DNA of 64,000 nucleotides. Origin: Streptomyces sp. NRRL F-5123 (GTDB taxonomy: Bacteria; Actinomycetota; Actinomycetes; Streptomycetales; Streptomycetaceae). Under the pieces are notes generated by a model. That model searched no databases. It was not told where the DNA came from and saw only the letters and a program-made list of their open reading frames with translations. The DNA lies in NCBI RefSeq assembly GCF_000721495.1, contig NZ_JOHY01000007.1, positions 1-64,000 on the forward strand. Direction: 5' to 3'. The translations under genes and the position numbers were made by a program. Positions within the stretch are counted from its first letter, which is position 1, and the number at the start of each line of letters is the position of its first letter. This document shows positions 35,775-58,356 of the stretch, piece by piece.

Positions 35775-37209
<1,435 letters not shown>

Positions 37210-37217
<8 letters not shown>

Positions 37218-38106: not shown

Positions 38107-38191
38107 CGCACCCCGCCGCTCGCTTCTCCGCCCGCCCGGCAACACCGCGCCCCCGCACCCGCCCGCACCCGGGCGGCCTCGCGTGCGTCGC

Positions 38192-40371: not shown

Positions 40372-42522
40372 TCAGGCCGCGCCGGCCTCCTCGCGGGCCT
40401 CCGAGGCCTCCTCGGCGTCCGAGGCGTCCGCGCCCTCCGGCCCGTCCGCCCGCGCCCCCTCGTCGTCCTCCGGGGCCAGGTCGATCTGGAGGGCCGCCAA
40501 CCGGGCGATACGGCTGTCGGCGCGGCCGGCCAGCTCGCGCGCGGCCTGCCCGAAGCGCTCGATCGACGCGGGCTCGTCCGGGCCGAGCAGGTATTCGCGT
40601 ATCTCGCGCCGGGCGTCGGCCAGCGGGTCCTGCTCGGGGCGGACGACCGCGGCCACCAGCTCGCCCACCCGGGCGGCGCTGTTGTCGAGGATCAGCGCGG
40701 CGCGCGCGGCGGTGTTCTGCCGCATGAACTCCTGCTCGCCGAGCCCGGCCGAGTCGGTGATGGCGTACGGCTTGCGGGTCGCGACGAAGTCCGACACGAC
40801 GCTGGAGATGTCCGAGACCATCGCGTCGGACTGGTTGAAGCAGTCGTACAGGTGCGGCGCGGGGCCGGTGACGACGGTGTGCTCCCACGGCGCGATGGAC
40901 GCCCAGTACGCGGTGTCGCGCTCGACCCGCAGCCGGGCCAGCCGCTCACCGGCCGCCGGGTCGGTCAGCGCGTCCCGCGAGGCGACGGCCTCGTCGTCGC
41001 CCCTCGCGCCCGGGCCCGCGGCGAGCGCGGCGATCTCCGCGTCGAGCCGGGCGACCTCGGCGCGGGCGGCGGCCCGCGCGTCCGCGTCCGGGCCGGCACC
41101 GGTCCGCGCGGCCCACGCGGGGTCGGCGCGGCGGGCGGCGGCGGCCTGCTCGACCAGGGCGGTGATCTTCCGGTGGGCGGCCTTGGCGCGCTTGTCGACC
41201 GTGCCGGTGAAGGGGTGCGGCTTGTAGAGCACGCGCACCGGGGGCTCGGACTCCAGCAGGCCGCGGACGATGTTGACACCGGCCAGGATCAGCGAGGTGT
41301 TGCCCGGGTCGTCGGTCCAGCCCTCCCACGTGGGGGCGTACAGCACGGTGGGGATGCCGTCGGGGGCGGCGCCGTCCCAGGTGCGGATCGGGTCCAGCTG
41401 CGGTCGGCCGACCTCGACGATGTCCTCGTCGCGGACCCCGACCTCGGCGAGCGCGTAGCGGTCGCGGCCGGCCCGGCCCGCGGTCCACACCTCGTCGTAG
41501 ACCTTGCTGAAGGGGTTGACGCTGGCGATCTTGTCGCTGTCGCCGTGGCCGACGAAGACGTGCTTGATCGTCGGCACCCGCAGCAGGTGGATGTTCTTGC
41601 CGACGTTCGCCGGGTAGAGCGCGACCCGCACGCTGGACAGGTCCATGTTCATCAGGTGCACCGCCCCCGGCACGCACAGCACCGGCAGGTCGGTCGGGGC
41701 GAGCTTGGACAGGATCACCTCCTCGCGGAGGATCACCAGCGGGCGCTCCTTGAGCTGCTCCATCGTCGTCAGCCACATGTTGACCTGGTACGCGGAGTCC
41801 GGCGACCCGGAGAAGTACAGCACCGTGGTGGGCCGGTACTCGCGCAGCCAGGTGTCGATGAAGGCCAGCGCCTTCGGGCGGCCGGCCGGCAGACGCCGCT
41901 TGAGCAGCAGGTAGGGCGCGACCAGCAGCACGTACAGCAGCGCGAGGCCGATCGTGACGGCGAGGCCGGTCCAGGCGTAGGCGGCGGTCTCGACGTGCGC
42001 GTAGGCCAGCAGCCCGGCCATCGCGAAGACGTCCAGGTGCAGCATCTTCTCCTGGCCGCGCGCGACCAGCCGGCGCGGCGGGGCGTCCGGGATGCGCAGC
42101 CGGCTCAGGTCGATGTTGCGGGTCATGTACGGCAGCCGGCGGCGGTTGCCGATGAGCGTGAGGAGCGCGCCGTGCGGGGCCTGGAGCCCGTAGAAGACGA
42201 CGAAGGCCACGACGGCGGAGGCGAAGACGGCGGTGCCGCCCAGGCCGAGGCGGGCCAGCAGCAGCAGGACGGTCAGCTCACGGACCAGGAAGCGCGCGGG
42301 CAGTCCGACGCCGAGCAGCGCCAGCCGGTTGACCAGGTAGCTGCGGCGCTGGTGCAGGGACCGGTCGGCGAGGTAGCCGACGGCGGTCGCGACCGCGAAG
42401 AAACCGGCTGACGGCAGCAGTGCGGCCACCAGCAGGCAGGGGTAGCTGATCAGCATCAGCGCTGCCGCAGCGAGTTCGGTGCGGGAGCCCACACGGGCTA
42501 CGCGGATGACCTTCGAGATCAC
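40372..42522 (-). CDS. TarF/TarL-type CDP-polyol glycerophosphotransferase family protein
   Basis: 716 residues. The N-terminal 210 residues contain about five or six membrane helices; a GT-B fold Glyphos_transf domain follows (about 320-650) with HVFVGHGDSDKI, YAPTWEGWTDD, LYKPHPFTG and the SDAMVSDISSVVSDF motif. A helical Ala/Asp/Arg-rich insert splits it at about 465-545, and an acidic tail ends it. The family polymerises glycerol- or ribitol-phosphate teichoic acids from CDP-alcohols. Next to the CDP-ribitol synthase gene, a ribitol-phosphate polymerase or primase is likely. GTG start at 42522. Confidence 0.88.
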   Translation of the reverse strand: MISKVIRVARVGSRTELAAAALMLISYPCLLVAALLPSAGFFAVATAVGYLADRSLHQRRSYLVNRLALLGVGLPARFLVRELTVLLLLARLGLGGTAVFASAVVAFVVFYGLQAPHGALLTLIGNRRRLPYMTRNIDLSRLRIPDAPPRRLVARGQEKMLHLDVFAMAGLLAYAHVETAAYAWTGLAVTIGLALLYVLLVAPYLLLKRRLPAGRPKALAFIDTWLREYRPTTVLYFSGSPDSAYQVNMWLTTMEQLKERPLVILREEVILSKLAPTDLPVLCVPGAVHLMNMDLSSVRVALYPANVGKNIHLLRVPTIKHVFVGHGDSDKIASVNPFSKVYDEVWTAGRAGRDRYALAEVGVRDEDIVEVGRPQLDPIRTWDGAAPDGIPTVLYAPTWEGWTDDPGNTSLILAGVNIVRGLLESEPPVRVLYKPHPFTGTVDKRAKAAHRKITALVEQAAAARRADPAWAARTGAGPDADARAAARAEVARLDAEIAALAAGPGARGDDEAVASRDALTDPAAGERLARLRVERDTAYWASIAPWEHTVVTGPAPHLYDCFNQSDAMVSDISSVVSDFVATRKPYAITDSAGLGEQEFMRQNTAARAALILDNSAARVGELVAAVVRPEQDPLADARREIREYLLGPDEPASIERFGQAARELAGRADSRIARLAALQIDLAPEDDEGARADGPEGADASDAEEASEAREEAGAA

Positions 42523-42625
42523 GGGGTGGCTGCTCCTCAGTTCCTCGGATGCCTCAATGTGCTGCGGTTCACGGAAACGGCAGTACCCCCCGCTGCCGCT
42601 CGTGGACGAGGTGGTGGCGGGCCCC

Positions 42626-44140
42626 TCAGGTGCGCGCGGCCCCGGTGTCGTCGCCGCTGTCGGCCAGGGTACGGGCGAGCGCGGCCTCGAAGCCGGACAC
42701 CGCCGCGCTGCCCCGGGTGGGGTCCTGCTGGCGCACGTCGATGACGTGCCCGGTCATGGCGGACAGCAGGACGTCCAGCGAGGTCCTGGCGACGGCCTCG
42801 GAGGACAGCAGGCTGCCCTCGGGCTCCTGACCGAAAGCCTTGGTACGCATGGGGGTGGCGGTGCGTTCCGGGTTGACGCAGTTGACCCGGATGCCGTCGG
42901 CGGCCCACTCGTCGGACAGCGCCTGGGTGAGGTTGACCATCGCGGCCTTGGTCGAGGAGTACAGGCTGTACTCGGCCCGTCCCCGCGTGTAGCTGCTGGA
43001 GGTGTAGAGCAGCAGCTGGCCGCCGGTCTCGGCGAGGTACTTGTGCGCCGCGCGGGCGATCAGCACCGGGCCGAGGTAGTTGACGCGCAGCGCCTCCTCG
43101 ACGACCGAGCCGTCGGTCTCGGCGAGCCGGCCCACCCGCAGCACGCCCGCGGTGTTCACGACGTAGTCGATCCGCCCGGTCTCCTGGTACGCGCGGGCGA
43201 GCGCGTCCTCCACCTGCTGCGGGTCCTCGACGTGGGTGCCGGTGGTGGAGCGGCCGAGCGCGTAGACGGTGGCGCCGTGCTCCTCGGCGATCCGCGCCAG
43301 GTCGCCGCCGATGCCGTACGAACCGCCGAAGACGACCATGGTGCGCCCGGTGAGCGCGGCACGGTAGGCCTCCGCGTCGGCGGGGTGCGGGGCGGCGGTG
43401 GACGCGAGCTGGAAGAGCTTGTCGGCGATGAAGACGTCGACGGGCTGGGTGACCTTCATGTTGTACTCGTCACCCGCGACGACGTGGATCGGCACGTCCG
43501 GCAGGTAGCGCAGCACCACCGAGCAGTCGTCGGTGGCCTGGAAGTTCGGGTCGTTCCCGGCGATCTCGTACGCGCGGCGGATCGTCGACAGCTTGAAGGC
43601 CTGCGGCGTCTGGCCGCGGCGCAGCCGGGAGCGGTCCGGGATGTCGGTGATGAACTCGCCGTCCTCACCGTGGGTGCGCGTGACGATGATCGTGTCGGCG
43701 GACGGGATGGCCACGTCCACGGCCTGGTAGCGGTCCAGGGCGGCCACGCAGTCGGCGACGATGCGCTGCGACAGCAGCGGCCGGACGGCGTCGTGGAAGA
43801 GCAGGTTGCGGTCCTCGCCCTCGGCGAGGTCGGCGCCGAGCACCTGGATGGCGATCTCGGTGGTCTCGTTGCGGGTGGCCCCGCCCTCCATGATCCGTGT
43901 CACCTTGGCCAGGCCGGCCTTCGCGACGATCTTCTGCACGTCGGGCACGTAGCCGGGCGCCATCAGCACCAGCACGTCGTCGATGCAGTCAGCCTGCTCG
44001 AAAATGGCCAGTGTGTGCTCGATCACGGACTTGCCAGCGATCTTGAGCAGCTGCTTGGGTATCGAGAGTCCGACCCTTTGACCGGTACCACCGGCAAGGA
44101 TCACTGCGGTGGTACGGGGTGTGGCGGTGTGCTGCGACAA
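42626..44140 (-). CDS. Fused cytidylyltransferase / SDR reductase (CDP-ribitol synthase type)
   Basis: 504 residues. Residues 10-235: an IspD/TarI-like cytidylyltransferase (VILAGGTGQRVGLSIPKQLLKIAGKSVIEHTL, HDAVRPLLS, RGQTPQAFKL, TDDCSVV). Residues 255-480: a short-chain reductase with MVVFGGSYGIGGDLARIA and YSSTK (YxxxK). The fusion matches Bcs1-type enzymes, which reduce ribulose-5-phosphate and couple ribitol-5-phosphate to CTP, giving CDP-ribitol for teichoic acid. TTG start at 44140; divergent from the acetyltransferase at 44286. Confidence 0.9.
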   Translation of the reverse strand: MSQHTATPRTTAVILAGGTGQRVGLSIPKQLLKIAGKSVIEHTLAIFEQADCIDDVLVLMAPGYVPDVQKIVAKAGLAKVTRIMEGGATRNETTEIAIQVLGADLAEGEDRNLLFHDAVRPLLSQRIVADCVAALDRYQAVDVAIPSADTIIVTRTHGEDGEFITDIPDRSRLRRGQTPQAFKLSTIRRAYEIAGNDPNFQATDDCSVVLRYLPDVPIHVVAGDEYNMKVTQPVDVFIADKLFQLASTAAPHPADAEAYRAALTGRTMVVFGGSYGIGGDLARIAEEHGATVYALGRSTTGTHVEDPQQVEDALARAYQETGRIDYVVNTAGVLRVGRLAETDGSVVEEALRVNYLGPVLIARAAHKYLAETGGQLLLYTSSSYTRGRAEYSLYSSTKAAMVNLTQALSDEWAADGIRVNCVNPERTATPMRTKAFGQEPEGSLLSSEAVARTSLDVLLSAMTGHVIDVRQQDPTRGSAAVSGFEAALARTLADSGDDTGAART

Positions 44141-44285
44141 CGGAAAAACCTGCCCGGTGCGACGAGGGAATGCTCGATGCTCTCACCGGCAGCAACCCTG
44201 TCGCAAGGCAGACCACCTCTGAGCGTCTCCCTCCGTTCGCCGATCGTATGCTTTCCCGCATCCCCGTACCGGAAGGCGCCTCACA

Positions 44286-44888
44286 GTGAACTACAGGGTC
44301 CAGCCCACCGCCCAGGTCGACGAGACCGCCCAGATCGGCGCCGGCAGCAGCGTCTGGGAGCTCGCCCAGATCCGTGAGCAGGCGGTGCTCGGCACCGACT
44401 GCGTCGTCGGCCGCGGCGCCTACGTGGGCACCGGCGTGGTCATCGGTGACAACGTCAAGCTGCAGAACTACGCCCTGGTCTACGAGCCCGCCCGGCTCGG
44501 CGACGGCGTCTTCATCGGCCCCGCCGCTGTGCTCACCAACGACCAGTACCCGCGCTCCGTCGACCCCGAGGGCAAGCAGAAGCGCGGCGGCGACTGGGAG
44601 GCCGTCGGTGTGACGATCGCCGAGGGCGCGTCGGTCGGCGCCCGCTCGGTGTGCGTGGCCCCGGTCAGCGTCGGCCGCTGGGCGCTCGTCGCCGCGGGCG
44701 CGGTCGTCACCCGTGACGTACCCGACTTCGCACTGGTCGCGGGTGTCCCCGCCAAGCGCATCGGCTGGGTCGGCCGGGCCGGCGTGCGCCTGGCCGAGCG
44801 GGCGGACGAGCCGGGCGTGTGGGAGTGCCCGCAGACCGGCGCACTGTACGACGAGGCCGACGGCGTGCTGACCGAGCGCGCGGGCTGA
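44286..44888 (+). CDS. WbpD-like sugar N-acetyltransferase (left-handed beta-helix)
   Basis: 200 residues of hexapeptide repeats (AQIGAGSSVWELAQIREQAVLGTDCVVGRGAYVGTGVVIG...), with GVTIAEGASVGARSVCVAPVSVGRWALVAAGAVVTRDVPDFALVAGVPAKRIGWVG-type capping, as in UDP-2-acetamido-3-amino-uronate N-acetyltransferases (WbpD). It would acetylate the 3-amino group made by the aminotransferase at 52790. GTG start at 44286. A short Cys-containing tail (VWECPQTGALYDE) follows, as in this subfamily. Confidence 0.88.
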   Translation: MNYRVQPTAQVDETAQIGAGSSVWELAQIREQAVLGTDCVVGRGAYVGTGVVIGDNVKLQNYALVYEPARLGDGVFIGPAAVLTNDQYPRSVDPEGKQKRGGDWEAVGVTIAEGASVGARSVCVAPVSVGRWALVAAGAVVTRDVPDFALVAGVPAKRIGWVGRAGVRLAERADEPGVWECPQTGALYDEADGVLTERAG

Positions 44889-44929
44889 CCGGTCGCGCGC
44901 CCCACTCCAGCGAATCGAATCGACACGAC

Positions 44930-46114
44930 ATGACTCAGACGAACGCGGAGGCACTTCCGCCGCCGCCGGGCGGAGACGCCCTGCATGCCGCAATACCGTC
45001 GCAGGCCCCGCGCCCGGAGCCCGAGACGCTGCCCGCCGAGGCGCCGCGCACCCCCGGGCAGGACACGGGCCGGGCGAAGGCCCCGACGCGGCTCTACGCG
45101 CTGGACGGCCTGCGGGTGCTGGCCGCGCTGTCCGTCATGCTCTTCCACTACACCGGAATCGACGGGGCCAGCCCCACCGTCTGGGGAGCGAACCCGAAGC
45201 ACCTCTTCCCGACGGTCTTCCGCTTCACCAAGTACGGCTCGCTCGGCGTCCAGCTCTTCTTCATCATCAGCGGCTTCGTGATCTGCATGTCCGCCTGGAA
45301 CCGCACCCCCGGGCAGTTCGTGAAGGCCCGCTTCCTGCGGCTCTTCCCGGCGTACTGGTTCTCGATCATCGTCGCGTACACCCTGTGGCACGCGGTCCCG
45401 GACCACAACCGGACCCCGCCGAGCACCAGCGACTCGCTGATGAACCTCTCGATGTTCCAGGTCCCGATGGGCGCCCGGCACCTGGTCGGCTCGTACTGGA
45501 CGCTCTACGCCGAGCTGCTCTTCTACCTGGTCTTCCTGCTGGTCCTGACGAAGAAGCTGGACTTCCAGCGGGTCTACGTCTTCTGCTGGGGCTGGCTCGT
45601 GACGTCGATGCTCTTCCAGCAGCCCACCGGGCTGCAGATCGTCTCGACCCTCGCCCCGGCGATCAACACCGCGCTGTTCGTGGCGGGCATCACCATGTAC
45701 CTGATGTACCGCTTCGGCGCCGACCTCAAGCTGTGGCTGCTGCTCGGCGCCAGCTGGCTCTCCGTGCAGCAGGACATGAGCCAGCACACGCTCAAGATCC
45801 GCCACCAGGGCCTGCACGAGAACAACACCGTCGTGATCGGCCTCATCACGCTCTTCTACCTGCTGATCCTCGCGGTCGCGCTGCACAAGCTGGACTGGGT
45901 CAGCTGGCGCTGGCTGACGGTCGCCGGAGCCTCCGTCTACCCGCTCTACCTGCTGCACGAGGAGCTGGGCTTCGCCCTCATCCGGCACCTGCGCCTGCAC
46001 ATGGGCACCTATCCGACGCTCGCCACCACGGTGGTGCTCGTGCTGGCGCTCTCCTACGTGGTGCAGCGCTGGGTGGAGCGCCCGGCCTACGGCTGGCTGC
46101 GCAAGCGGCTGTAG
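44930..46114 (+). CDS. Acyltransferase 3 family membrane O-acyltransferase
   Basis: 394 residues with about 10 membrane helices. OafA/acyltransferase-3 signatures: YALDGLRVLAALSVMLFHY (catalytic His region), QLFFIISGFVICMS, FVKARFLRLFPAYWF, HLVGSYWTLYAELLFY. The first 50 residues are Pro/Ala-rich and disordered. Would O-acetylate or otherwise acylate an envelope glycan. ATG at 44930 lies 41 bases after the acetyltransferase stop, same operon. Confidence 0.92.
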   Translation: MTQTNAEALPPPPGGDALHAAIPSQAPRPEPETLPAEAPRTPGQDTGRAKAPTRLYALDGLRVLAALSVMLFHYTGIDGASPTVWGANPKHLFPTVFRFTKYGSLGVQLFFIISGFVICMSAWNRTPGQFVKARFLRLFPAYWFSIIVAYTLWHAVPDHNRTPPSTSDSLMNLSMFQVPMGARHLVGSYWTLYAELLFYLVFLLVLTKKLDFQRVYVFCWGWLVTSMLFQQPTGLQIVSTLAPAINTALFVAGITMYLMYRFGADLKLWLLLGASWLSVQQDMSQHTLKIRHQGLHENNTVVIGLITLFYLLILAVALHKLDWVSWRWLTVAGASVYPLYLLHEELGFALIRHLRLHMGTYPTLATTVVLVLALSYVVQRWVERPAYGWLRKRL

Positions 46115-46131
46115 CCCGGCCCGCGCACGGG

Positions 46132-46169
46132 GAACGGCCCCGGACAGCGAAAGCTGTCCGGGGCCGTTC
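46132..46169. terminator. Bidirectional terminator between converging genes
   Basis: Perfect 17-base stem starting GAACGGCCCCGGACAGC with a GAAA tetraloop, between the acyltransferase stop (46114) and the convergent glycosyltransferase stop (46200). Confidence 0.9.
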
Positions 46170-46199
46170 TGATGCGTCCGGTGCGTACGGAGCGTCCGG

Positions 46200-48809
46200 T
46201 CAGGAGGACAGGAAGGACCGCAGCGCCCTGGCGGTGGCCGTGCCGTCGTGGTAGGTCCGCACGTACTTCACGGAGTCCACGCCGATCTGGGCCGTCGCGA
46301 CCGGGTCGGACAGCAGCCGCTCCATCGTCTCGCCGAGCTTGTCGGGCGCGCAGTTGACGATCGGCGGGGCCTCGCCGATCGCGTCCGCGACCTGCTGGTC
46401 GAGGTAGGCCACGACCGGCTTGCCGGCCGCCATGCCCTCGCACGCGTAGGTGCCGTAGCTGCCCACCGCGAACTGGTCGACGACGATGTCGGCGTTCTGC
46501 ACCATCTCGCGCATGCGCGTCCAGCTGACGCCCTCCGCCAGCTGGAAGTCGATGGCGCCGCGCTCGTGCAGATCCTCCAGCACGGGCATGATCCGGTCGG
46601 TGCCCTTCGTCCAGCGCTTGGACGGGGCGTGCAGCACCACCGGGCGCTTGCGCTCCATCACGGGGCTGTCGCAGGCCCAGGAGTCGACGTCGACGACGAG
46701 CGGCGCCCAGGTCGCCATCGGCAGGTCGTGGAGCAGGTCGGGGGTGGTCACGAAGACCGGCAGCCCGCACTCCTGCGCCGTCCTGACGTTCCGCTCGGCG
46801 ATGGCGCCGAGCCGCTCCGCGTAGCCCTCGGGAGCGTCGAAGAAGAGCGAGTAGGGGTTGCGCGCCATGTGCTCACGCGGCAGCCGTACCTCGCTGCCGT
46901 GCGCCAGCAGGGCCACCTTGATGCCGGCCTTGTGCATCGCGGGCAGGTCGCCCTCGATGCTGTCGCCGTTGAGCCCGCCGAAGAGCGGCAGGAAGGCGTC
47001 GGCCAGGACGTGGGTGTACCGCGGCAGGACCCGGTGGACCTGGTCGAGCTGCACGTCCAGGTTCTTGAGCGTCCCGCGGTCCACGTAGACGTCGGCCGGG
47101 TAGTCGAAGGAGGTGGGCGCCTTGTGCATGACCACTTCGACCGACACGTCGGTGCGGTCGCGGCACACCGCCTGCGCGAAGGTGGCCAGCTGCCCGGCGT
47201 AGTTGGCGGGACCCATGCCGAGCCGGACGGGTGTGGACTTGGTGAGCGGCGTCCACAGCAGCTCGTGGTCGGCCGGGGCCGCCTCGGCGTCCTCGACGGC
47301 CGCGTGCTCGGTGGCCTCCCAGGACACCGGCTCAGCCGGCGGCGGCGGGGTCAGGCCCGACATGTCCTGGTACAGGGTCATCAGGCCCTGGCACTGGAAC
47401 TCCCACGACAGGTCCTGCCGGATCTCCTCGGTGATGTTGGCCTTGAGCGCGGCCAGCCGTCCCGTCGCGCGCCGCACGGCCGCCGCGAAGGAGGCCGGGT
47501 CGTCGGCGGTGTGGACCTCGCCGACGTCGTGGCTCCGGACGTAGGCGCTGAGCGTGCGCACATCGCTGGAGATGATCGGCAGGCCCGCGTGCAGGTACTC
47601 GGCGGCCTTGGTCGGCAGCGAGTTCTCCACGTTGGGCGAGCGCCGGAAGCTGATCACGCCCAGGTCGGCGCTGGCCAGGTAGTCGGGCACCTCGTGCTGC
47701 TCGACGTAGGGCACGACGTGGATCCGGTCCCGGACCCCGAGCTGCACCGCCTGGTCGAGCAGTTCCGTCAGGCCCGCGCTGCGCCGGCCCGAGACCAGCG
47801 CCAGATGGTGGTCGGGCAGGTCGGGAAGGGCGGCCACCGCGGTGTCGAGGCCGCGTATCGCGTCGATCCAGCCCGCGTACACCAGCAGCGGCACACTGTC
47901 GTCCAGACCGCACGCGGCCCGCACCGACACCCGCCCCTGCGAGACGCCGATGGATTCGCGCACCGGCGCGTTGCGCACCACGAGGGGCGTCCTGGCCAGG
48001 CCGTGGTCCTTGCGCAGGATCTCGGCCAGCTCCGGCGAGACCGTCACCACGGCGTCCGCCTTGCGTATGAACTCCTGTTCCAGCTGGATGTACGCGGCGC
48101 GCATCAGCGGCTTGGGCCACTCGACGCCCGCCACGTACTCGTGCGAGTCGTACAGCCAGTTGCAGCGCTGCCCGGACGCACGCAACCGGGCGGCGGCGCG
48201 GGCGGCCACGTGGATCATGGTGATGTCGTTGGCGTGGATGACGTCCGGGGCGACCTTCTCGATGGCCGGGCCGAACGCCAGATCCAGATCGAGCAGGGCG
48301 GGCCAGTCGCGGCGCCAGTCACCGGTGCTCGGACGCTCCTCGGGACGGCGGCGCTCCTCCCAGCCGTACGCGCGCACGCGCAGCTTGTGCGCCTGGCGGC
48401 GGGCGCGCACCCATGCCTTGAGGCCGACCGCGGGAATCTTGGTGACGCTGTTGTCGCTGAGCCAGCCGATCCGGGCGGACTGCTCGCGCACCCATGAGCG
48501 GTGGGCCGACCTCAACTGCTGGAATTCGCTGCGGTCCTTGATACCGAACTGCGTCAGCCGCACCCGCGCGGTGCTGTGCCGGCTGCGGACGGCCTCCCGC
48601 CGCGTCATCTGCTGGCCGACCGGAACCCGGATGACCTTCACAGGGCCGAACCACGCGTGCTCGGTTCGCTTGCCGGTGGCACGGCCGATGAGGGTGACGT
48701 CCCAGCCCTCCCGTGCCGCCGCAAGCGCGGTCTTCTGCACACGGGAATCCCCGGTGATTCGGTTTGCCACGATGACGGCAAGTTTGGGCCGAGGCGCGGG
48801 CGTTGTCAT
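46200..48809 (-). CDS. Double GT-B glycosyltransferase
   Basis: 869 residues with two tandem GT-B (GT4-like) modules. Module 1 (1 to about 460): KLAVIVANRITGDSRVQKTALAAAREGWDVTLIGRA, DVIHANDITMIHVAARAAARL, VTVSPELAEIL, and the E-x7-E donor site near PNVENSLPTKAAEYLHAGLPIISSD. Module 2 (about 510-869): RLGMGPANYAGQLATFAQAV, LLAHGSEVRLP, VVLHAPSKRWTKGTDRIMP, and FAVGSYGTYACEGMAAGKPVVAY. A single protein may therefore add two sugars. ATG at 48809 behind AAAAGGAA. Monocistronic between terminators. Confidence 0.9.
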   Translation of the reverse strand: MTTPAPRPKLAVIVANRITGDSRVQKTALAAAREGWDVTLIGRATGKRTEHAWFGPVKVIRVPVGQQMTRREAVRSRHSTARVRLTQFGIKDRSEFQQLRSAHRSWVREQSARIGWLSDNSVTKIPAVGLKAWVRARRQAHKLRVRAYGWEERRRPEERPSTGDWRRDWPALLDLDLAFGPAIEKVAPDVIHANDITMIHVAARAAARLRASGQRCNWLYDSHEYVAGVEWPKPLMRAAYIQLEQEFIRKADAVVTVSPELAEILRKDHGLARTPLVVRNAPVRESIGVSQGRVSVRAACGLDDSVPLLVYAGWIDAIRGLDTAVAALPDLPDHHLALVSGRRSAGLTELLDQAVQLGVRDRIHVVPYVEQHEVPDYLASADLGVISFRRSPNVENSLPTKAAEYLHAGLPIISSDVRTLSAYVRSHDVGEVHTADDPASFAAAVRRATGRLAALKANITEEIRQDLSWEFQCQGLMTLYQDMSGLTPPPPAEPVSWEATEHAAVEDAEAAPADHELLWTPLTKSTPVRLGMGPANYAGQLATFAQAVCRDRTDVSVEVVMHKAPTSFDYPADVYVDRGTLKNLDVQLDQVHRVLPRYTHVLADAFLPLFGGLNGDSIEGDLPAMHKAGIKVALLAHGSEVRLPREHMARNPYSLFFDAPEGYAERLGAIAERNVRTAQECGLPVFVTTPDLLHDLPMATWAPLVVDVDSWACDSPVMERKRPVVLHAPSKRWTKGTDRIMPVLEDLHERGAIDFQLAEGVSWTRMREMVQNADIVVDQFAVGSYGTYACEGMAAGKPVVAYLDQQVADAIGEAPPIVNCAPDKLGETMERLLSDPVATAQIGVDSVKYVRTYHDGTATARALRSFLSS

Positions 48810-48814
48810 GCGGA

Positions 48815-48832
48815 TTCCTTTTGTTCCTTTTG
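48815..48832. repeat. Duplicated A-rich ribosome-site sequence
   Basis: Two adjacent copies of the 9-mer CAAAAGGAA (minus strand), the second forming the ribosome site of the double glycosyltransferase. Unusually AT-rich for this genome. Confidence 0.7.
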
Positions 48833-48857
48833 TTTCACCAAGAGAGCAAGACTGTGG

Positions 48858-48891
48858 CTATGGACCCGTACGGAGTTGTACAGGTCCATAG
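48858..48891. terminator. Hairpin after nucleotide-sugar dehydrogenase
   Basis: CTATGGACC / GGTCCATAG perfect 9-base stem with an inner GTAC pairing, 10 bases after the dehydrogenase stop and before the double glycosyltransferase gene. Confidence 0.65.
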
Positions 48892-48901
48892 TGCCGCAGC
48901 T

Positions 48902-50185
48902 TCAACCGCCGATGACGACCCGGCGGACGCCCTCCCAGCGTGCCGGGTCGGTGGTGCGGCGGCCGTCCACGAGGACCCGCACCTCCGGCAGGTCGGCGGC
49001 CGCCAGATCGCGGTACTCGGCGTGGTCGGCCTGCAGCACCGCCGCCGTGACCGGCTGCCCGGTGTGCGGCGTGAGGCCCAGCGCGGACAGCTCCTCGGCG
49101 GTGTACATCGGGTCGGAGACGTACGGCACCGCGCCGCGCTCGGCGAGCGCCGCGACCGTGCCGAAGACGCCGGAGAACGCGGTCTCCTTGACGCCGCCGC
49201 GGTAGGCGGCGCCCAGCACCAGCACCTCGACACCGGTCAGGTCGCCGTAGGCGGCGGCCAGCAGATCCACGGCGTACGACGGCATGGCCGCGTTCGCCTC
49301 GCGCGCGGCGCGCACGACGGTGGCCTCCGGGTCGTTCCACAGGTACATCCGCGGGTAGATCGGGATGCAGTGCCCGCCGACCGCGATGCCCGGCTGGTGG
49401 ATGTGGCTGAACGGCTGGGTGTTGCAGGCCTCGATGACGGCCTTGACATCGATCCCGGCCTTGTCCGCGTAGCGCGCGAACTGGTTGGCCAGGCCGATGT
49501 TGACGTCCCGGTACGTGGTCTCGGCGAGCTTGGCCATCTCCGAGCCCTCGGCCGAGCCCAGGTCCCACACACCGTTGGCGCGCGTGAGGTCGGGGCGCTC
49601 GTCGAAGTCGAGCACCGCCTCGTAGAACTCCACGCCGTGCGCGGCCGAGGCCTCGTCTATGCCGCCGACGAGCTTGGGGTAGCGGCGCAGGTCGGCGAAG
49701 ACCCGGCCGGTGAGCACCCGCTCGGGGCTGAAGACCAGGTGGAAGTCCTCGCCCGCGGTCAGACCGGAGCCCTCGGCGAGCATGGGCGCCCAGCGGCCCC
49801 TGGTGGTGCCGACCGGGAGCGTCGTCTCGTACGACACCAGGGTTCCGGGGCGCAGACCGCGGGCGATGTCGCGGGTCGCGGCGTCCATCCAGCCGAAGTC
49901 GGGCACGCCCTCCGCGTCCACGAACAGCGGGACGACGACGACCACGGCCTCGGACTCGGCGACGGCCGCCGCGGTGTCCGTGGTCGCGGTCAGCAGCCCG
50001 GAGCCCACGACCTCCTTGAGCTTGACGTCGAGGTCGAACTCGCCGGGGAAGGGCTCGGTACCGGCGTTGACCAGCTCGACGACCTTCTCGTTGACGTCGG
50101 TGCCGATCACCCGGTGGCCCTTGGACGCGAACTGCACGGCCAGCGGCAGCCCGATCTTGCCCAGGGCCACGACGCAGATGTTCAT
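48902..50185 (-). CDS. UDP-N-acetylhexosamine 6-dehydrogenase (WbpA/WecC type)
   Basis: 427 residues of the UDP-sugar dehydrogenase family: Rossmann start ICVVALGKIGLPLAVQFASKGHRVIGTDVN, the SPERV motif in FHLVFSPERVLTG, AKLAETTYRDVNIGLANQFA, and the catalytic cysteine in GGHCIPIYP (about residue 270). Oxidises UDP-GlcNAc or UDP-ManNAc to the uronic acid. With the oxidoreductase and aminotransferase of the same operon and the WbpD-like gene at 44286, it completes the route to UDP-2,3-diacetamido-uronic acid. ATG at 50185, RBS AGGAAG overlapping the previous stop. Confidence 0.92.
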   Translation of the reverse strand: MNICVVALGKIGLPLAVQFASKGHRVIGTDVNEKVVELVNAGTEPFPGEFDLDVKLKEVVGSGLLTATTDTAAAVAESEAVVVVVPLFVDAEGVPDFGWMDAATRDIARGLRPGTLVSYETTLPVGTTRGRWAPMLAEGSGLTAGEDFHLVFSPERVLTGRVFADLRRYPKLVGGIDEASAAHGVEFYEAVLDFDERPDLTRANGVWDLGSAEGSEMAKLAETTYRDVNIGLANQFARYADKAGIDVKAVIEACNTQPFSHIHQPGIAVGGHCIPIYPRMYLWNDPEATVVRAAREANAAMPSYAVDLLAAAYGDLTGVEVLVLGAAYRGGVKETAFSGVFGTVAALAERGAVPYVSDPMYTAEELSALGLTPHTGQPVTAAVLQADHAEYRDLAAADLPEVRVLVDGRRTTDPARWEGVRRVVIGG

Positions 50186-50190
50186 GGGTG

Positions 50191-51780
50191 CTACTTCTTC
50201 CTGAGTCGGAGCAGTCGCGCTGCGACGGCTCGCAGCCCGATGGGGGCGACCTTGCACACCAGCCGCCCCTTGTCGTCTGACGTGAGGGACACCGCGTACG
50301 CGCGCATCCCCCGCAGCAGCACGCGCTGCCGCTGGACGCCCGCGGCGCGCAGCCGTACGCGGTAGGGCTTGCCGGCGAGCGTCACCGCGAGCACCGGCCT
50401 CCACCGGACCGCGGTACGCGGTGCGGCGGCGACCAGCGACCGCAGCGGGACGCGTCCGGCAACCAGCGTGGCCGCACCCCCCTTGGGCGTGCCCTTCACC
50501 CGGGTGTCGACGGCGACGTCGGCGGTGTCCGCCGGCCCCTCCATCACGAGCGAGGCGCCGAACGCGGGACCGGCCCCGTAGGAGCCGAGCAGTCCGATAC
50601 GCGCGGTCACGTCCAGGACGGGCCCCTGGCCGGACGCCCGGCCCCAGACCGCGGAGGTCGCCCTGGCACCGGCGGCGAGCCGGCCCGCGACGCTCTCCTC
50701 GACGACCTCGAACCAGCGCATCGGCAGGACCGCGTCCGCGTCCCGGAAACCGGGGTAGCGGGCGTAGGCGTGCTCGCCCTCCAGGACGAACGGCGGGGCG
50801 CCGTGCTCCGCCTCGTCCTCGATGAGCGCGCACAGTTCGGCCGTGCGCCCGGCCTGCGCGAGGCCGATGCGGACCCGCTGCTTGACGCCCATGCTGTCGC
50901 GCACCGCGTCGGTGAGGTAGCGGTCGGCGAGGTCGGCGATGCCCTTGACCAGGCGCTCGCGCACGGCGGCGTCGAGGGCCGGGAAGTCGTCCTGGAGCAG
51001 CTTGGCCAGCTCCCAGCGGAAGTGCCGCATGAGCACGGCGTCCCGCAGCGGGCCGGGCTCGACCAGGCCGGCGACGTGGTCCATCACGCGCGCCGCGCAC
51101 GCGAGGCGCGCCTCGTGGTTCGCGCGGTAGGTGATGTTGCCGGCGTCCTCGCGCTTGACCGCGTAGTAGTACGTGCCGTCGGCGAGCACCGAGATACGGG
51201 ACGCGCGCAGGCACGCCTCGATCGTGAAGGGCTGGTCGCTGCCGACCGGCATGTCCTCGGGGAAGCGCAGCCCGTGCCGCTCGACCAGCTCGCGCCGGAA
51301 GAGCTTGGTGTTGGCCACGGTCCACGGCAGCGCCGAGTTGGTGAAGGTGACGTCGTGCCGCGTCTCCTGGTAGAGCTCCTGGTGGACGTAGCGCCCGTTG
51401 GTGCCCTCCATCTTGCCGACGACCACGTCCGAGCCGTGCTCGTCGGCGGCCGCGACCATCCGCTCCAGGGCGTACGGGGCGAGCCGGTCGTCGGAGCCGA
51501 TGAAGAAGACGTAGCGGCCGGTGGCGGCGTCCAGCGCCTTGTTGCTGGGCGCCGCCGGACCGCCGGAGTTCGGCTGCCGCAGAACCTTCACGGTGCCCGG
51601 GTGGAGACTGGCGAAGCGCTCCAGCTCCTTCAGGCTGTCGTCGGTGGACCCGTCGTCCACCGCGACGACCTCCAGCCGGTCCAGGCCGATGCTCTGCTCT
51701 ACCAGCGAGGTCAGGCAGTCGGTCAGGTACGGCATGGTGTTGTAGACAGCCACCACGACGGTGACGTCCGGGGTGGTCAC
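50191..51780 (-). CDS. TarS-like wall teichoic acid glycosyltransferase (GT2)
   Basis: 529 residues. The GT2 domain (1 to about 300) resembles S. aureus TarS strikingly as I remember it: QPNSGGPAAPSNKALDAA, GSDD, DEHGSDVVVGKMEGTNGRYVHQELYQET, ALPWTVANTKLFRREL, FPEDMPVGSDQPFTIEACLRASRISVL, TYYYAVKRE. TarS adds beta-GlcNAc to ribitol-phosphate teichoic acid. The C-terminal about 200 residues look like the beta-rich repeats that TarS uses for oligomerisation. GTG at 51780 overlaps the oxidoreductase stop (GTGA). The operon position suggests its donor is the diacetamido-uronic acid made by its neighbours. Confidence 0.87.
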   Translation of the reverse strand: MTTPDVTVVVAVYNTMPYLTDCLTSLVEQSIGLDRLEVVAVDDGSTDDSLKELERFASLHPGTVKVLRQPNSGGPAAPSNKALDAATGRYVFFIGSDDRLAPYALERMVAAADEHGSDVVVGKMEGTNGRYVHQELYQETRHDVTFTNSALPWTVANTKLFRRELVERHGLRFPEDMPVGSDQPFTIEACLRASRISVLADGTYYYAVKREDAGNITYRANHEARLACAARVMDHVAGLVEPGPLRDAVLMRHFRWELAKLLQDDFPALDAAVRERLVKGIADLADRYLTDAVRDSMGVKQRVRIGLAQAGRTAELCALIEDEAEHGAPPFVLEGEHAYARYPGFRDADAVLPMRWFEVVEESVAGRLAAGARATSAVWGRASGQGPVLDVTARIGLLGSYGAGPAFGASLVMEGPADTADVAVDTRVKGTPKGGAATLVAGRVPLRSLVAAAPRTAVRWRPVLAVTLAGKPYRVRLRAAGVQRQRVLLRGMRAYAVSLTSDDKGRLVCKVAPIGLRAVAARLLRLRKK

Positions 51781-52793
51781 CCGCGCACCGCCACGGGGCC
51801 GAGCTGGACGGTCTCGCCGGTCTGCGCGGAATCGATGACCGCCGAGGAGACCTCGACCGTCCGCAGGCCCTGGCGCAGGGTGACGATGTCGGCGTCCTTG
51901 CCGAGCATCGCGTCCCGGAACAGCTCGTGCTCCACCAGCAGCGGCTCGCGCTTGGCGAGGGCGTAGCGGACCATGTCGCCCTCGGCGACCCCGCGGAAGG
52001 CGCGCAGCGCCTCCCACTCGGTGGTGATGACGCCGTTGGCGAAGAACGTCAGGTCGGCGGTGAGGGTGTCGGCCACGAAGCAGCCGCGCTCACCGGTGAC
52101 CACGGTGGTGCGCTCCTTGAGCGGGCTGAGCCAGTTCACCAGGTGGTTGACCATCGTGCCGTCGGCGAGCTGGCCGACGACGGCGACCATGTCCTCGTGC
52201 TCGCGGCCGCTCTTGGAGACGGTCCGCGCGGACACCGAGGTGTAGTCGCTGCCGGTGACCCAGGACGTCAGGTCGATGTCGTGGGTCGCGAGGTCCTTGA
52301 CCACGCCGACGTCGGCGATGCGGTGCGGGAAGGGGCCCTGGCGGCGGGTGACCACCTGGTAGACGTCGCCCAGCTCGCCGGCCGCGAGCCGCGTCCGCAG
52401 GCTCTGCAGCGCGGGGTTGAAGCGCTCGATGTGGCCGACGCCGGCCACCAGGCCGCGCGTCTCGAAGGCCTCGACCAGCCGCTGCGCGGCCTTGACGGTG
52501 TGCGCCAGCGGCTTCTCGACGAGCGCGCCCGCACCGGCCTCGGCCAGCGCCAGGCCGACCTCCTCGTGCAGCGCGGTCGGGCAGGCGACGACGGCGTAGT
52601 CGACACCGATCTCCAGCAGCTCGGCGACCGTGCCGACGACCGGGGCGCCCTGCGCGGCGCCGTTGACGTCGCCCAGCGGGTCGACGACGCCGACGAAGTC
52701 GACGCCTTCCAGGCCGGACAGCACACGGGCGTGGTTGCGGCCCATCGCGCCCAGGCCGACGAGGCCGGCGCGCAGCCTTGCGGACTCGCTCAT
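51777..52793 (-). CDS. Gfo/Idh/MocA oxidoreductase (WbpB-like)
   Basis: 338 residues. NAD-binding start AGLVGLGAMGRNHARVL, the EKPLAHTVKAAQRLVEA motif, GHIERFNPALQSLR, and the catalytic region DLATHDIDLTSWVTG. WbpB-type enzymes oxidise the 3-hydroxyl of UDP-GlcNAc-uronate, the step before transamination. ATG at 52793 overlaps the aminotransferase stop as ATGA; downstream it overlaps the TarS-like gene as GTGA. Confidence 0.92.
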   Translation of the reverse strand: MSESARLRAGLVGLGAMGRNHARVLSGLEGVDFVGVVDPLGDVNGAAQGAPVVGTVAELLEIGVDYAVVACPTALHEEVGLALAEAGAGALVEKPLAHTVKAAQRLVEAFETRGLVAGVGHIERFNPALQSLRTRLAAGELGDVYQVVTRRQGPFPHRIADVGVVKDLATHDIDLTSWVTGSDYTSVSARTVSKSGREHEDMVAVVGQLADGTMVNHLVNWLSPLKERTTVVTGERGCFVADTLTADLTFFANGVITTEWEALRAFRGVAEGDMVRYALAKREPLLVEHELFRDAMLGKDADIVTLRQGLRTVEVSSAVIDSAQTGETVQLGPVAVRG

Positions 52794-53899
52794 CGCTGCT
52801 CCCCCAGGGCGTTGACGGCGGTGACGATCCGCTCCAGGTCGTCCTGGCTCAGCGACGGGTGCACCGGCAGCGACAGCACCTCGGCCGCGGCCTTCTCCGT
52901 CTCCGGCAGGTCCCACTGCCGGTTGATCTTCTGGTCCGGCTCCCAGAACGGCTTGAGCCGGTGGATCGGCGTCGGGTAGTAGACGCCGCTGCCTATGCCG
53001 CGCTCGGTGAGCGCCTTCTGCGCGGCGTCCCGGTCGGCGACCCGGATCGTGTACTGGTGGTAGACGTGCCGGGCGCCCTCGGCGACCGGCGGGACGACGA
53101 CCCCGGTGAGGTTCGCGTCCAGGAAGGCGGCGTTCGCGCGGCGCTGCTCGGTCCAGGCCTTGAGCTTGCCGAGCTGGACGCGGCCGATCGCGGCGGCGAC
53201 GTCGGTCAGCCGCATGTTGGCGCCGACGATCTCGTTGGCGTAGCGCTGCTCCATGCCCTGGTTGCGCAGCAGCCGCAGGGTGCGGGCGGTCTCCGCGTCC
53301 GGGGTGCTGACCATGCCGCCTTCGAGGGCGTGCATGTTCTTGGTCGGGTAGAAGCTGAAGCACGCCGCGGCACCGAAGGCACCGACGGGGGTGCCGTGCA
53401 GGGCGGCGTCGTGGGCCTGGGCGGCGTCCTCGACGACCGCGAGGCCGTGCTTCTCGGCGATGGGGGTGATCTTGTCCATCGCGGCGGGGTGCCCGTAGAG
53501 GTGCACCGGCATGATCGCGGCGGTGCGCGCGGTGACCGCGGCCTCGACGGCGGCGGGGTCGACGCAGAAGCTGCCCGGCTCGATGTCGACGAAGACCGGC
53601 TCGGCACCCACCAGGCGGACGGCGTTCGCGGTGGCGGCGAAGGAGAACGACGGCACGATCACCTCGTCGCCGCTGCCTATGCCCAGTGCCAGCAGCGCCA
53701 GGTGCAGGGCGGAGGTGCCGGAGTTCACAGCCACGCAGTGCCGGTCGGCGACGAGCGCGGAGAACTCCTGCTCGAAGGCGGCCACTTCGGGGCCCTGCAC
53801 CACGCTGCCGCTGCGCAGCACGCGCACGGCGGCGTCGATCTCGTCGTCACCGATGACGGGTCGAGCGGCGGGTACGAATGCCGGCTCAGCGCCTGACAT
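52790..53899 (-). CDS. DegT/DnrJ/EryC1 sugar aminotransferase (WbpE-like)
   Basis: 369 residues, PLP-dependent. Motifs: RSGSVVQGPEVAAFEQEFSALV, AVNSGTSALHLALLALGIGSGDEVIVPSFSF, VVEDAAQAHDA, and the PLP lysine in FSFYPTKNMHALEGGM (about residue 185). Expected to aminate the 3-keto sugar produced by the WbpB-like enzyme. ATG at 53899 with GGAGGG upstream; first gene of the operon, reading away from a 790-base gene-free region. Confidence 0.94.
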   Translation of the reverse strand: MSGAEPAFVPAARPVIGDDEIDAAVRVLRSGSVVQGPEVAAFEQEFSALVADRHCVAVNSGTSALHLALLALGIGSGDEVIVPSFSFAATANAVRLVGAEPVFVDIEPGSFCVDPAAVEAAVTARTAAIMPVHLYGHPAAMDKITPIAEKHGLAVVEDAAQAHDAALHGTPVGAFGAAACFSFYPTKNMHALEGGMVSTPDAETARTLRLLRNQGMEQRYANEIVGANMRLTDVAAAIGRVQLGKLKAWTEQRRANAAFLDANLTGVVVPPVAEGARHVYHQYTIRVADRDAAQKALTERGIGSGVYYPTPIHRLKPFWEPDQKINRQWDLPETEKAAAEVLSLPVHPSLSQDDLERIVTAVNALGEQR

Positions 53900-55730: not shown

Positions 55731-55738
55731 GTTCGAGC

Positions 55739-56176
55739 GTGCCCAAGCTGTCGCCGCAACTCCTCCAGATAGTCCGGTTCGCCCTCGTCGGCGGTGTGAA
55801 CACCGCCACGTTCTACGGCTTCTATCTGGCGCTGCACCCGCTGATGCCGTACTTCGCGGCGTATTCGGCAGCCTTCGTGCTGAGCATGATCGGCTCGTTC
55901 TTCCTCAACACGTACTTCACCTACCGCACCCGGCCGACGTGGCGGAAATTCTTCCTCTTCCCGCTGACCAACGTCACCAACTACGTGGTGACCAGCATCG
56001 GCGTCTACGTCTTCGTCGAGTGGGTCGGGATGAACGACAAGATCGCCCCGCTGGTCGCCGCGGCCGCAGCGATCCCGTTCACGTACATGCTGTCCCGGCG
56101 GATCCTCACCCGTGACGTCCCCGGCGAGGCCGCCGGGGAGGTCACCGAGGACAAGCCGCCGGCGACCGTCTTCTGA
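55739..56176 (+). CDS. GtrA family flippase-like protein
   Basis: 145 residues with four membrane helices and the GtrA start QIVRFALVGGVNTATFYGFYLAL, plus SMIGSFFLNTYFTYRTRPTWRKF. GtrA proteins are thought to flip the polyprenyl-phosphate sugar made by the GtrB partner, whose gene ends 8 bases upstream. GTG start at 55739. Confidence 0.93.
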   Translation: MPKLSPQLLQIVRFALVGGVNTATFYGFYLALHPLMPYFAAYSAAFVLSMIGSFFLNTYFTYRTRPTWRKFFLFPLTNVTNYVVTSIGVYVFVEWVGMNDKIAPLVAAAAAIPFTYMLSRRILTRDVPGEAAGEVTEDKPPATVF

Positions 56177-56199: not shown

Positions 56200-57639
56200 T
56201 CAGGCGAACGGGTCGAAGCCCTGGTACTCGTCGTCGGCCTCGTCGTGCGCGGCCTGCTTGTCCTTGCGCCGCTGGGCGGCCGCGCGGGGCGCGTCGAAGC
56301 GGTGGTCCTCGCCGCGGCGGCCGAGCATCTCGGCGCCGGCGGCCATCGTGGGCTCCCAGTCGAACACGACCGCGTCCTCGTCCGCGCCGATCGCCACGCC
56401 GTCGCCCGCCTTGGCGCCCGCCTTGCGCAGCTCGTCCTCGACGCCCAGCCGGTTGAGCCGGTCCGCGAGGTAGCCGACGGCCTCGTCGTTGTTGAAGTCG
56501 GTCTGCCGCACCCAGCGCTCCGGCTTCTCGCCGCGCACCCGGAAGAGGCCGTCCTCCTCCGTCACGGTGAAGCCGCTGTCGTCGACGGCCTGCGGGCGGA
56601 TGACGACCCGGGTCGACTCCTGCACCGGACGCGCCGCGCGCGTCTCGGCCACGATCTGCGCGAGCGCGAAGGACAGCTCGCGCAGCCCCTCGTGCGCCAC
56701 CGCGGAGACCTCGAAGACCCGGTAGCCGCGCGCCTCCAGGTCGGGCCGGACCATCCCGGCCAGCTCGCGCCCGTCCGGCACGTCGATCTTGTTGAGGACG
56801 ACGACCCTCGGCCGGTCCTCCAGGCCGCCGCCGTACGCCCGCAGCTCCGCCTCGATCACGTCGAGGTCCGAGACCGGGTCGCGGTCGGACTCCAGCGTCG
56901 CGGTGTCCAGCACATGCACCAGCACCGAGCAGCGCTCGACGTGCCGCAGGAACTCCAGGCCCAGCCCGCGCCCCTCGCTCGCGCCGGGGATCAGTCCGGG
57001 CACGTCGGCGATGGTGTAGACGGTCGTGCCCGCGGTCACCACGCCCAGGTTCGGCACCAGGGTGGTGAAGGGGTAGTCGGCGATCTTCGGCTTGGCCGCG
57101 GACAGCACCGAGATCAGCGACGACTTGCCCGCGCTCGGGTAGCCGACAAGCGCCACGTCCGCGACGGTCTTCAGCTCCAGCACCACGTCGCGCGCGATAC
57201 CCGGCTCGCCCAGCAGCGCGAAGCCCGGCGCCTTGCGGCGGGCCGAGGCCAGCGCGGCGTTGCCGAGGCCGCCGCGGCCGCCCTGCCCGGCGACGAAGGA
57301 CGTGCCCTCCCCCACCAGGTCGGCCAGCACGTTGCCATTGCCGTCCAGCACGACCGTGCCGTCCGGCACCGGCAGGACCAGGTCCTGGCCGTCCTTGCCG
57401 GAGCGGTTGCCGCCCTCGCCGGGCTTGCCGTTGGTGGCCTTGCGGTGCGGGCTGTGGTGGTAGTCCAGCAGCGTGGTGACGTCCTGGTCGACCACCAGGA
57501 CGACGTCGCCGCCCCGCCCGCCGTTGCCGCCGTCCGGCCCGCCCAGCGGCTTGAACTTCTCCCGGTGCACGGAGGCGCAGCCATGGCCCCCGTTACCCGC
57601 GGCGACATGCAGCTCGACGCGGTCCACGAAGGTGGTCAT
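56200..57639 (-). CDS. obg: Obg GTPase
   Basis: 479 residues, a ribosome-associated GTPase, tied in Streptomyces to the onset of sporulation. Glycine-rich Obg fold (1-160, [15 protein letters not shown]), G domain with [16 protein letters not shown] and NKID, and a C-terminal OCT domain (about 365-435) with a charged tail. ATG at 57639 with GGAGG upstream. It follows rpmA after a terminator hairpin. Confidence 0.98.
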
Positions 57640-58032: not shown

Positions 58033-58356
58033 TTACTTCGCAGCCGCGGCGGGGATGCCAGTGATCTTCAGCGCCGTGTACTGCTGGCGGTGACCCTGGC
58101 GGCGCCGGTAACCGGTCTTGTTCTTGTAGCGCAGAATGTCGATCTTCTGGCCCTTGTGGTGGTCGACGATCTCGGCCTGGACCTTGATGCCGGCGAGCAC
58201 CCACGGGTCGCTGGTGACGGCCTCGCCGTCCACCACGAGCAGCGTCGAAAGCTCGACGGCGTCGCCGACCTTGCCGGTGGAAATCTTGTCGACCTCGACG
58301 ATGTCGCCGACGGCCACCTTGTGCTGGCGGCCACCGCTACGCACGATCGCGTACAC
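58033..58356 (-). CDS. rplU: 50S ribosomal protein L21
   Basis: 107 residues. [23 protein letters not shown] and [29 protein letters not shown] are diagnostic. The GTG at 58356 gives the standard start. The 248 bases upstream to rne carry the rne terminator and probably an own promoter (a TTGACC -35-like hexamer at 58485-58480, no good -10 seen). Confidence 0.98.

What the first reader, a model, noticed from the sequence alone, without database searches (positions are those of the whole stretch)
40372..53899. Possible new teichoic acid: ribitol-phosphate chain decorated with a diacetamido-uronic acid
Seen: a TarI+TarJ-like fusion (CDP-ribitol), a TarF/TarL-type polymerase and a TarS-like GT2, together with genes matching WbpA, WbpB, WbpE and WbpD, which in Pseudomonas make UDP-2,3-diacetamido-2,3-dideoxy-glucuronic acid. 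The TarS-like gene overlaps the WbpB-like gene and is followed 5 bases later by the WbpA-like gene. Known: TarS normally transfers GlcNAc. Inference: this TarS homologue has changed donor and places an acidic diacetamido sugar on ribitol phosphate, adding negative charge. I know of no described system combining these modules.
Basis: partly seen in the sequence, partly recalled or inferred. Interest (0 to 1): 0.82.

Follow-up and report, generated by a model that had tools for sequence, protein, structure and literature searches.

The report
Streptomyces-type teichoic–teichuronic hybrid wall polymer locus
These genes very probably build a cell-wall polymer in which an acidic diacetamido sugar chain is attached to a ribitol-phosphate backbone, a system described in Streptomyces in late 2025; the comparison here adds a likely fingerprint of how the linking enzyme changed its sugar donor.

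Summary
The genes match the utr locus of Streptomyces griseus and S. antibioticus (Zhao et al., Cell, Dec 2025, PMC13274773). There the TarS-like UtrC is needed for a teichuronic chain whose first sugar, GlcNAc3NAcA, sits β1→4 on ribitol-5-P. The window has utrA, B, C, D, J, a utrI-like acyltransferase, TarIJ and TagF beside rplU/obg, plus an unusual double GT4.

New here: (1) TarS donor-pocket triad R75/D91/E177 is S/G/S in the window and 80 of 80 relatives; over 143 TarS-like proteins, 102 of 102 of the UtrC group have S/C-G-S and 38 of 41 others R-D-E. (2) In 150 Streptomyces-like genomes all 25 with canonical UtrC encode TarIJ; the 4 with divergent UtrC do not, nor a fifth in the window's genus. 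These keep the altered pocket and carry other teichoic polymerases nearby, suggesting an acceptor switch; it is one evolutionary split. (3) The window's genome shows no Epimerase_2, so the sugar should stay GlcNAc3NAcA.

The parts
52790..53899 (-). utrA-like: DegT aminotransferase (WbpE type)
   Evidence: Pfam DegT 415.8 bits, measured on the ORF to 54253; WbpE structures among PDB hits; ATG at 53899 after gggaggga
51777..52793 (-). utrB-like: Gfo/Idh/MocA oxidoreductase (WbpB type)
50191..51780 (-). utrC-like: TarS-like GT2 with altered donor pocket S79/G95/S181 and K81; catalytic Asp D182 (TarS D178)
48902..50185 (-). utrD-like: nucleotide-sugar 6-dehydrogenase (WbpA type)
   Evidence: TIGR03026 282 bits; PDB 4r16
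46200..48809 (-). double glycosyltransferase: N-terminal GT4 plus a C-terminal half with Rossmann-like alternation in the model; candidate chain-extending enzyme (start 48740 or 48809)
   Evidence: long form in 12 of 80 loci
44930..46114 (+). utrI-like Acyl_transf_3 acyltransferase
   Evidence: Pfam 92.1 bits; its cluster c21 in 10 of 80 loci
44286..44888 (+). utrJ-like hexapeptide N-acetyltransferase (WbpD type)
   Evidence: PDB 3mqg 6.3e-39; NeuD-type NCBIfam match below cut-off
42626..44026 (-). TarI+TarJ fusion, CDP-ribitol synthesis (start may be 44140)
   Evidence: IspD/TarI and SDR domains; ribitol-5-P cytidylyltransferase is top NCBIfam match, below cut-off; homologues, mostly 79-84% identical, in 80 of 150 genomes
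40372..42456 (-). TagF/TarL-like polyol-phosphate polymerase; hydrophobic N-terminal part by eye
   Evidence: Pfam Glyphos_transf 31.0 bits; beside TarIJ in related loci
56200..57639 (-). obg, anchor gene
   Evidence: Pfam GTP1_OBG
58033..58356 (-). rplU (ribosomal protein L21), anchor gene used in the published utr study
   Evidence: Pfam; anchor named in the paper

Best explanation
The locus is a member of the utr family and makes a teichuronic-acid/ribitol-teichoic-acid hybrid. UtrD (6-oxidation), UtrB and UtrA (3-oxidation and amination) and UtrJ (N-acetylation) turn UDP-GlcNAc into UDP-GlcNAc3NAcA. TarIJ makes CDP-ribitol and the TagF-like protein makes poly(ribitol phosphate). UtrC, a TarS homologue whose donor pocket lost the R-D-E triad that in TarS surrounds the C4/C6 hydroxyls of GlcNAc, places GlcNAc3NAcA on a ribitol hydroxyl (C4 in the studied species). 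The double GT4 extends the chain and the acyltransferase O-acetylates its end. Shown by experiment in relatives: the GlcNAc3NAcA-β1,4-ribitol-5-P linkage and the need for UtrC. Inferred here: the sugar pathway, the donor switch in the pocket, the extension and acetylation steps, and the polymer of this organism.
For: Gene content and synteny with the published utr locus; the S. anulatus locus held here (L033) has the A, B, C, D and J types and no epimerase or acyltransferase in the stretch, as the paper says of S. anulatus. UtrC clade one side of a branch, SH-aLRT 99, in a tree without the motif columns. Catalytic Asp kept, triad replaced. 25 of 25 canonical-UtrC genomes encode TarIJ against 80 of 150 overall. 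No Epimerase_2 found in the window's genome.
Against: No chemistry exists for this organism. The published authors call their biosynthetic pathway speculative and not yet validated, and could not show the direct TUA-WTA link by NMR in S. griseus, resting it on SEC, DOSY and dephosphorylation. The double GT4 resembles retaining enzymes, which fits poorly with the β-linked homopolymer of S. antibioticus; its orthology to UtrG could not be tested. RmlT keeps R-D-E with another donor, so the triad is not strictly a GlcNAc mark. The basic residue at 81 is not exclusive: R also in 6 of 41 other proteins. The TarIJ association is not corrected for shared ancestry.
Confidence: 0.85

Rival explanations
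1. UtrC is an ordinary TarS that puts GlcNAc on ribitol; the diacetamido sugar is used by a different glycosyltransferase.
For: Overall fold and match to full-length TarS; TarS makes no contact with the N-acetyl group and tolerates other donors (passages).
Against: R75, D91 and E177, whose Ala mutants abolish TarS activity measured as UDP-GlcNAc hydrolysis, are replaced in the window and in 80 of 80 relatives. In S. griseus and S. antibioticus the chain whose first residue on ribitol is GlcNAc3NAcA depends on utrC.
Confidence: 0.07
2. The Wbp-type genes make a free teichuronic acid or other polysaccharide that is not joined to the ribitol teichoic acid.
For: A teichuronic acid with this sugar was reported earlier from Streptomyces sp. 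VKM Ac-2537 (as cited in the Cell paper). One genome (G557) keeps utrA, B, D, J and two other glycosyltransferase genes of such loci without utrC. The direct link was not seen by NMR in S. griseus.
Against: Published SEC, DOSY and dephosphorylation data support one molecule in S. griseus, and DOSY in S. antibioticus. G557 lacks TarIJ as well as utrC at the cut-offs used, as expected if UtrC is the joint. All 25 canonical-UtrC genomes have TarIJ.
Confidence: 0.06
3. The sugar is ManNAc3NAcA, as in Pseudomonas and in the S. griseus repeat.
For: A gene of the Epimerase_2-type cluster is close by in 43 of 80 related loci (one member checked with Pfam).
Against: No Epimerase_2 match in the window's genome, listed 100% complete in 250 contigs; the control rang in 11 of 14 genomes. 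The reducing-end residue in both studied species is GlcNAc3NAcA.
Confidence: 0.04

Closest known systems
utr locus / TUA-WTA hybrid of S. griseus and S. antibioticus (Zhao et al. 2025, PMC13274773)
   Same: utrA-D, utrJ, a utrI-like acyltransferase, TarIJ and TagF beside rplU/obg; UtrC with catalytic Asp; no utrE-type 4-epimerase among the genes scanned between obg and TagF and no utrH-type epimerase in the genome, as described for S. antibioticus
   Different: The utr genes lie between obg and tarIJ here; the one extra glycosyltransferase on the utr side is a double GT4 whose relation to UtrG is untested; the organism belongs to another genus of the same family; its polymer is unknown
TarS of Staphylococcus aureus
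   Same: GT2 domain, TarS linker, C-terminal part, catalytic residues; ribitol-phosphate acceptor in the studied UtrC homologues
   Different: Donor triad R75/D91/E177 replaced by S/G/S; donor GlcNAc3NAcA instead of GlcNAc (from the published structures of relatives)
WbpA/B/E/D pathway of Pseudomonas aeruginosa (recalled, and as cited in PMC13274773)
   Same: Same four enzyme types
   Different: No 2-epimerase (WbpI) found, and the sugar goes to a wall polymer, not to lipopolysaccharide
RmlT of Listeria monocytogenes (PDB titles)
   Same: TarS-like enzyme solved with TDP-rhamnose, UDP-glucose and ribitol-phosphate ligands
   Different: Keeps the R-D-E triad in the alignment

Membership tests
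utr TUA-WTA hybrid system | utrA, utrB, utrD and utrJ enzymes for UDP-GlcNAc3NAcA | tested here: met
   enzyme types by family and PDB matches, activities inferred; homologues of A, B, D in 80 of 80 and of J in 66 of 80 related loci
utr TUA-WTA hybrid system | UtrC: TarS-like glycosyltransferase with catalytic Asp | tested here: met
   D182 aligned to TarS D178; UtrC clade SH-aLRT 99. The S. griseus sequence itself was not held
utr TUA-WTA hybrid system | Linked TarIJ and TagF near rplU/obg | tested here: met
   anchors as in the paper
utr TUA-WTA hybrid system | Chain-extending glycosyltransferase UtrG | tested here: inconclusive
   Double GT4 present; no UtrG sequence known by name was held
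utr TUA-WTA hybrid system | O-acetyltransferase UtrI | tested here: inconclusive
   Acyl_transf_3 protein in place; orthology not tested
utr TUA-WTA hybrid system | 2-epimerase UtrH (S. griseus; absent in S. antibioticus, so optional) | tested here: not met
   No PF02350 match in the genome; optional in the family
utr TUA-WTA hybrid system | GlcNAc3NAcA β1,4 to ribitol-5-P in the wall | not testable with these tools
   needs NMR
TarS proper | GT2 + linker + C-terminal domain | tested here: met
   the C-terminal part rests on the 5tz8 alignment (rmsd 6.3), since most rows cover residues 2-360 only
TarS proper | Donor-pocket residues R75, D91, E177 | tested here: not met
   S79, G95, S181
TarS proper | Transfers GlcNAc | not testable with these tools
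   needs an enzyme assay

The most novel reading that the evidence does not exclude
UtrC is a TarS whose donor switch to GlcNAc3NAcA is written in three pocket residues (R-D-E to S/C-G-S, usually with a basic residue two positions after the first), changed once; afterwards a sister branch kept the donor pocket but moved the joint to a non-ribitol wall polymer, so donor and acceptor choice evolve separately. In the window's organism the double GT4 adds a retaining, probably α-linked, step and gives a third teichuronic structure.
Probability: 0.4. Interest if true: 0.65.

Novelty: new member of a known kind. Interest (0 to 1): 0.48.

Why it matters
The hybrid polymer is the receptor that antibacterial umbrella toxins recognise on S. 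griseus and S. antibioticus, and it differs between these species. The published pathway rests on structure-guided predictions. The pocket signature gives a concrete test of how UtrC picks its donor and a way to tell UtrC from other TarS-like enzymes in genomes; the branch without TarIJ predicts hybrids on a wall polymer that I did not find described.

Tried and rejected
Considered and rejected: ordinary TarS; free teichuronic acid; ManNAc3NAcA product (see rivals). Considered that the triad marks GlcNAc use as such: not so, RmlT also shows R-D-E. Considered GT2+Glyphos_transf fusions as a mark of TarIJ-less genomes only: not so, the window's genome has three Glyphos_transf places on contig C87, near TarS-like GT2 matches; that search did not return the window's own TagF-like protein, a weak member. 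The hypergeometric value for TarIJ (1.9e-8) ignores ancestry and is not used as a test. TarS H210 and S212, also important in TarS, lie beyond the TarS letters held and were not compared.

Limits of the counts. The 80 loci are the best 80 of 194, chosen by similarity to the window's UtrC; loci differ in length, so neighbour counts are lower bounds; TarIJ is visible in 19 of the 80 stretches and was not sought in the rest of those genomes. 'Canonical' means 55-66% identity, 'divergent' 44-52%. The tree uses the window, 22 of the 80 loci at random and the other distinct TarS-like proteins of at least 250 aa; the UtrC group was named from the motif itself, so repeats the comparison with a group set by bit score alone (UtrC at least 328 bits, others at most 273): the same 44 and 40 rows. 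Seven columns then share no letter between the groups: 79, 95, 181, and 152, 157, 158, 207, where the other group is variable; by the alignment, TarS itself has the UtrC letter at 158 and 207. Of 143 distinct TarS-like proteins: S-G-S 100, C-G-S 2, R-D-E 38, R-D-G 1, R-D-Q 1, one too short. Dropped before the 30-genome UtrB count: G501 (60%) and G568 (40%); G492 and G570 have a second UtrB-like gene (67-69%); the stretches fetched for G501 and for these second copies show no UtrC, that of G568 was not fetched. One divergent UtrC (G499) has an in-frame TGA in a fragmented assembly, so its missing TarIJ may be a gap. TarIJ absence means no match at E 1e-60; an unrelated CDP-ribitol route cannot be excluded. 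Alignment A1, used for the UtrC model and, has 40 rows, two of them (from L147, L152) TarS-like but not UtrC. Across 396 genomes of the phylum (three candidates scored per genome) the UtrC-type matches were all in the window's family.

Papers: PMC13274773 read in sections 8, 9, 10, 14, 45 and passages, supplements not seen; PMC5156392 and PMC13059722 passages only; other hits as listings. That I did not find the pocket change or the TarIJ-less branch in print rests on those sections and passages and on searches of an open-access library.

Full report
What is there. The minus-strand operon 53899→48902 encodes an aminotransferase, a Gfo/Idh/MocA oxidoreductase, a TarS-like GT2 and a nucleotide-sugar dehydrogenase, with a 4-base overlap and a 5-base gap around the GT2. 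A double GT4 follows on the same strand (46200-48809). On the plus strand lie a hexapeptide N-acetyltransferase (44286-44888) and an acyltransferase (44930-46114). A TarI+TarJ fusion (42626-44026) and a TagF-like protein (40372-42456) complete the set; obg and rplU lie on the other side.

It is a known system. A library search found Zhao et al., Cell 2025 (PMC13274773; sections and passages). Umbrella-toxin-resistant S. griseus clones most often carried mutations in utrA-E. UtrC resembles TarS; its deletion, or D181N, abolishes toxin sensitivity, and the deletion removes a teichuronic chain whose reducing-end GlcNAc3NAcA is β1,4-linked to a ribitol-5-P residue. That chain and teichoic acid are one molecule rests on SEC, DOSY and dephosphorylation; the authors could not establish the direct link by NMR in S. 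griseus. S. antibioticus, lacking utrE, F and H, makes a β1,4 homopolymer of GlcNAc3NAcA. The authors used L21/L27, TarIJ and TagF in finding the loci, as seen here. Their pathway assignments are, in their words, not yet experimentally validated.

Donor pocket. In TarS, E177 holds the C4 and C6 hydroxyls of GlcNAc and R75 bridges the C4 hydroxyl, D91 and E177; R75A, D91A and E177A abolish activity measured as UDP-GlcNAc hydrolysis (passages). In the window these are S79, G95 and S181; in 80 of 80 loci S, G and S. Y10, D93, D94, E171, D178 and R206 are kept. Position 77 of TarS (V) is R in 80 of 80 and K in the window; it is also R in 6 of 41 other TarS-like proteins, so it is a weaker mark. 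Over 143 distinct TarS-like proteins grouped by bit score alone, the UtrC group has S/C-G-S in 102 of 102 and the rest R-D-E in 38 of 41 (one R-D-G, one R-D-Q, one too short). Of the 102, 101 have a utrD-type gene within 7 kb in the DNA held; the other (L131 of G486) has it about 1.4 kb away in the longer stretch L135. R-D-E is kept by a second TarS-like gene beside a utr operon (L045). TarP and RmlT also show R-D-E. A scan of columns finds seven that share no letter between 44 UtrC and 40 others; at the three triad positions the others are themselves conserved (R 40, D 40, E 38 of 40), at the remaining four they are variable. On a tree built without the motif columns the change is needed once. 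The reading, which is inference: an acidic residue facing a C6 carboxylate is lost, its partners go with it, and a basic residue is usually gained nearby. Two divergent UtrCs (G205, G559) have C-Q-G-S, without the basic residue, which weakens that last point.

Acceptor. In 150 genomes of the genus of G141, TarIJ is in 80, UtrB (at least 74%) in 30, UtrC-type matches in 29. All 25 canonical-UtrC genomes have TarIJ; the 4 divergent ones (G205, G486, G499, G559) show none, and so does G557, which has utrA, B, D and J but no utrC. In the window's genus UtrB is in 2 of 35 genomes: the window's own (TarIJ present) and G004 (no TarIJ, UtrC 49% identical). The five divergent UtrCs form one group (SH-aLRT 92) and all five stretches carry GT2+Glyphos_transf fusion genes (Pfam in L135, L136, L138) or members of the same cluster (L137, L141). 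So the evidence is one evolutionary split, not five independent cases, and the window's own genome also has Glyphos_transf genes elsewhere; but it points to a sister branch that joins the same sugar to another backbone.

This organism's polymer. No Epimerase_2 match was found in the genome, so GlcNAc3NAcA is the expected sugar. The long double GT4 occurs in 12 of 80 loci; its N-terminal half is related to the single GT4 of other loci, and its C-terminal half matched only long forms among the proteins called here. The best structural matches of its model (mean pLDDT 77.5) are GT4-type enzymes such as MshA, retaining by its PDB title (the table gives no residue range, Pfam places GT4 in the N-terminal half). 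That would predict α linkages and makes the β homopolymer of S. antibioticus an imperfect guide.

Verdict. The pocket signature and the TarIJ-less sister branch are the parts that I did not find in print.

Noticed in passing
window 32013-40236: RmlA, RmlB and RmlD genes with a protein without Pfam match, two GT2s, DUF2304 and a DUF6020 protein, next to TagF: possibly rhamnose glycosylation of a wall polymer. In L045 rmlABD homologues and a second TarS-like gene precede utrA.
   Followed up: partly
window 54681-56176: GT2 plus GtrA-like pair on the plus strand between utrA and obg; 82% and 92% identical copies beside utrA in G004 (L138).
   Followed up: partly
G000 contig C87, about 5-14 kb (L002, L003, L155-L157): A second teichoic-acid-type locus with three Glyphos_transf places and two TarS-like GT2 matches carrying R-D-E.
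   Followed up: partly
L139 (G557) 8206-11709: utrD and utrB ORFs only 76 bases apart, utrC missing, and no TarIJ match in the genome: joint absence of the linker and the ribitol pathway.
   Followed up: partly
L011, L012, L020, L060: FG-GAP-repeat proteins (one checked with Pfam) in utr loci, beside utrJ and a large protein in L012, L020 and L060; the paper reports the umbrella lectin gene umbA beside utrJ in S. griseus. Not tested whether these are umb genes.
   Followed up: no
window 16545-16618 and 20609-20682: Two tRNA-Ala (ggc) genes about 4 kb apart.
   Followed up: no
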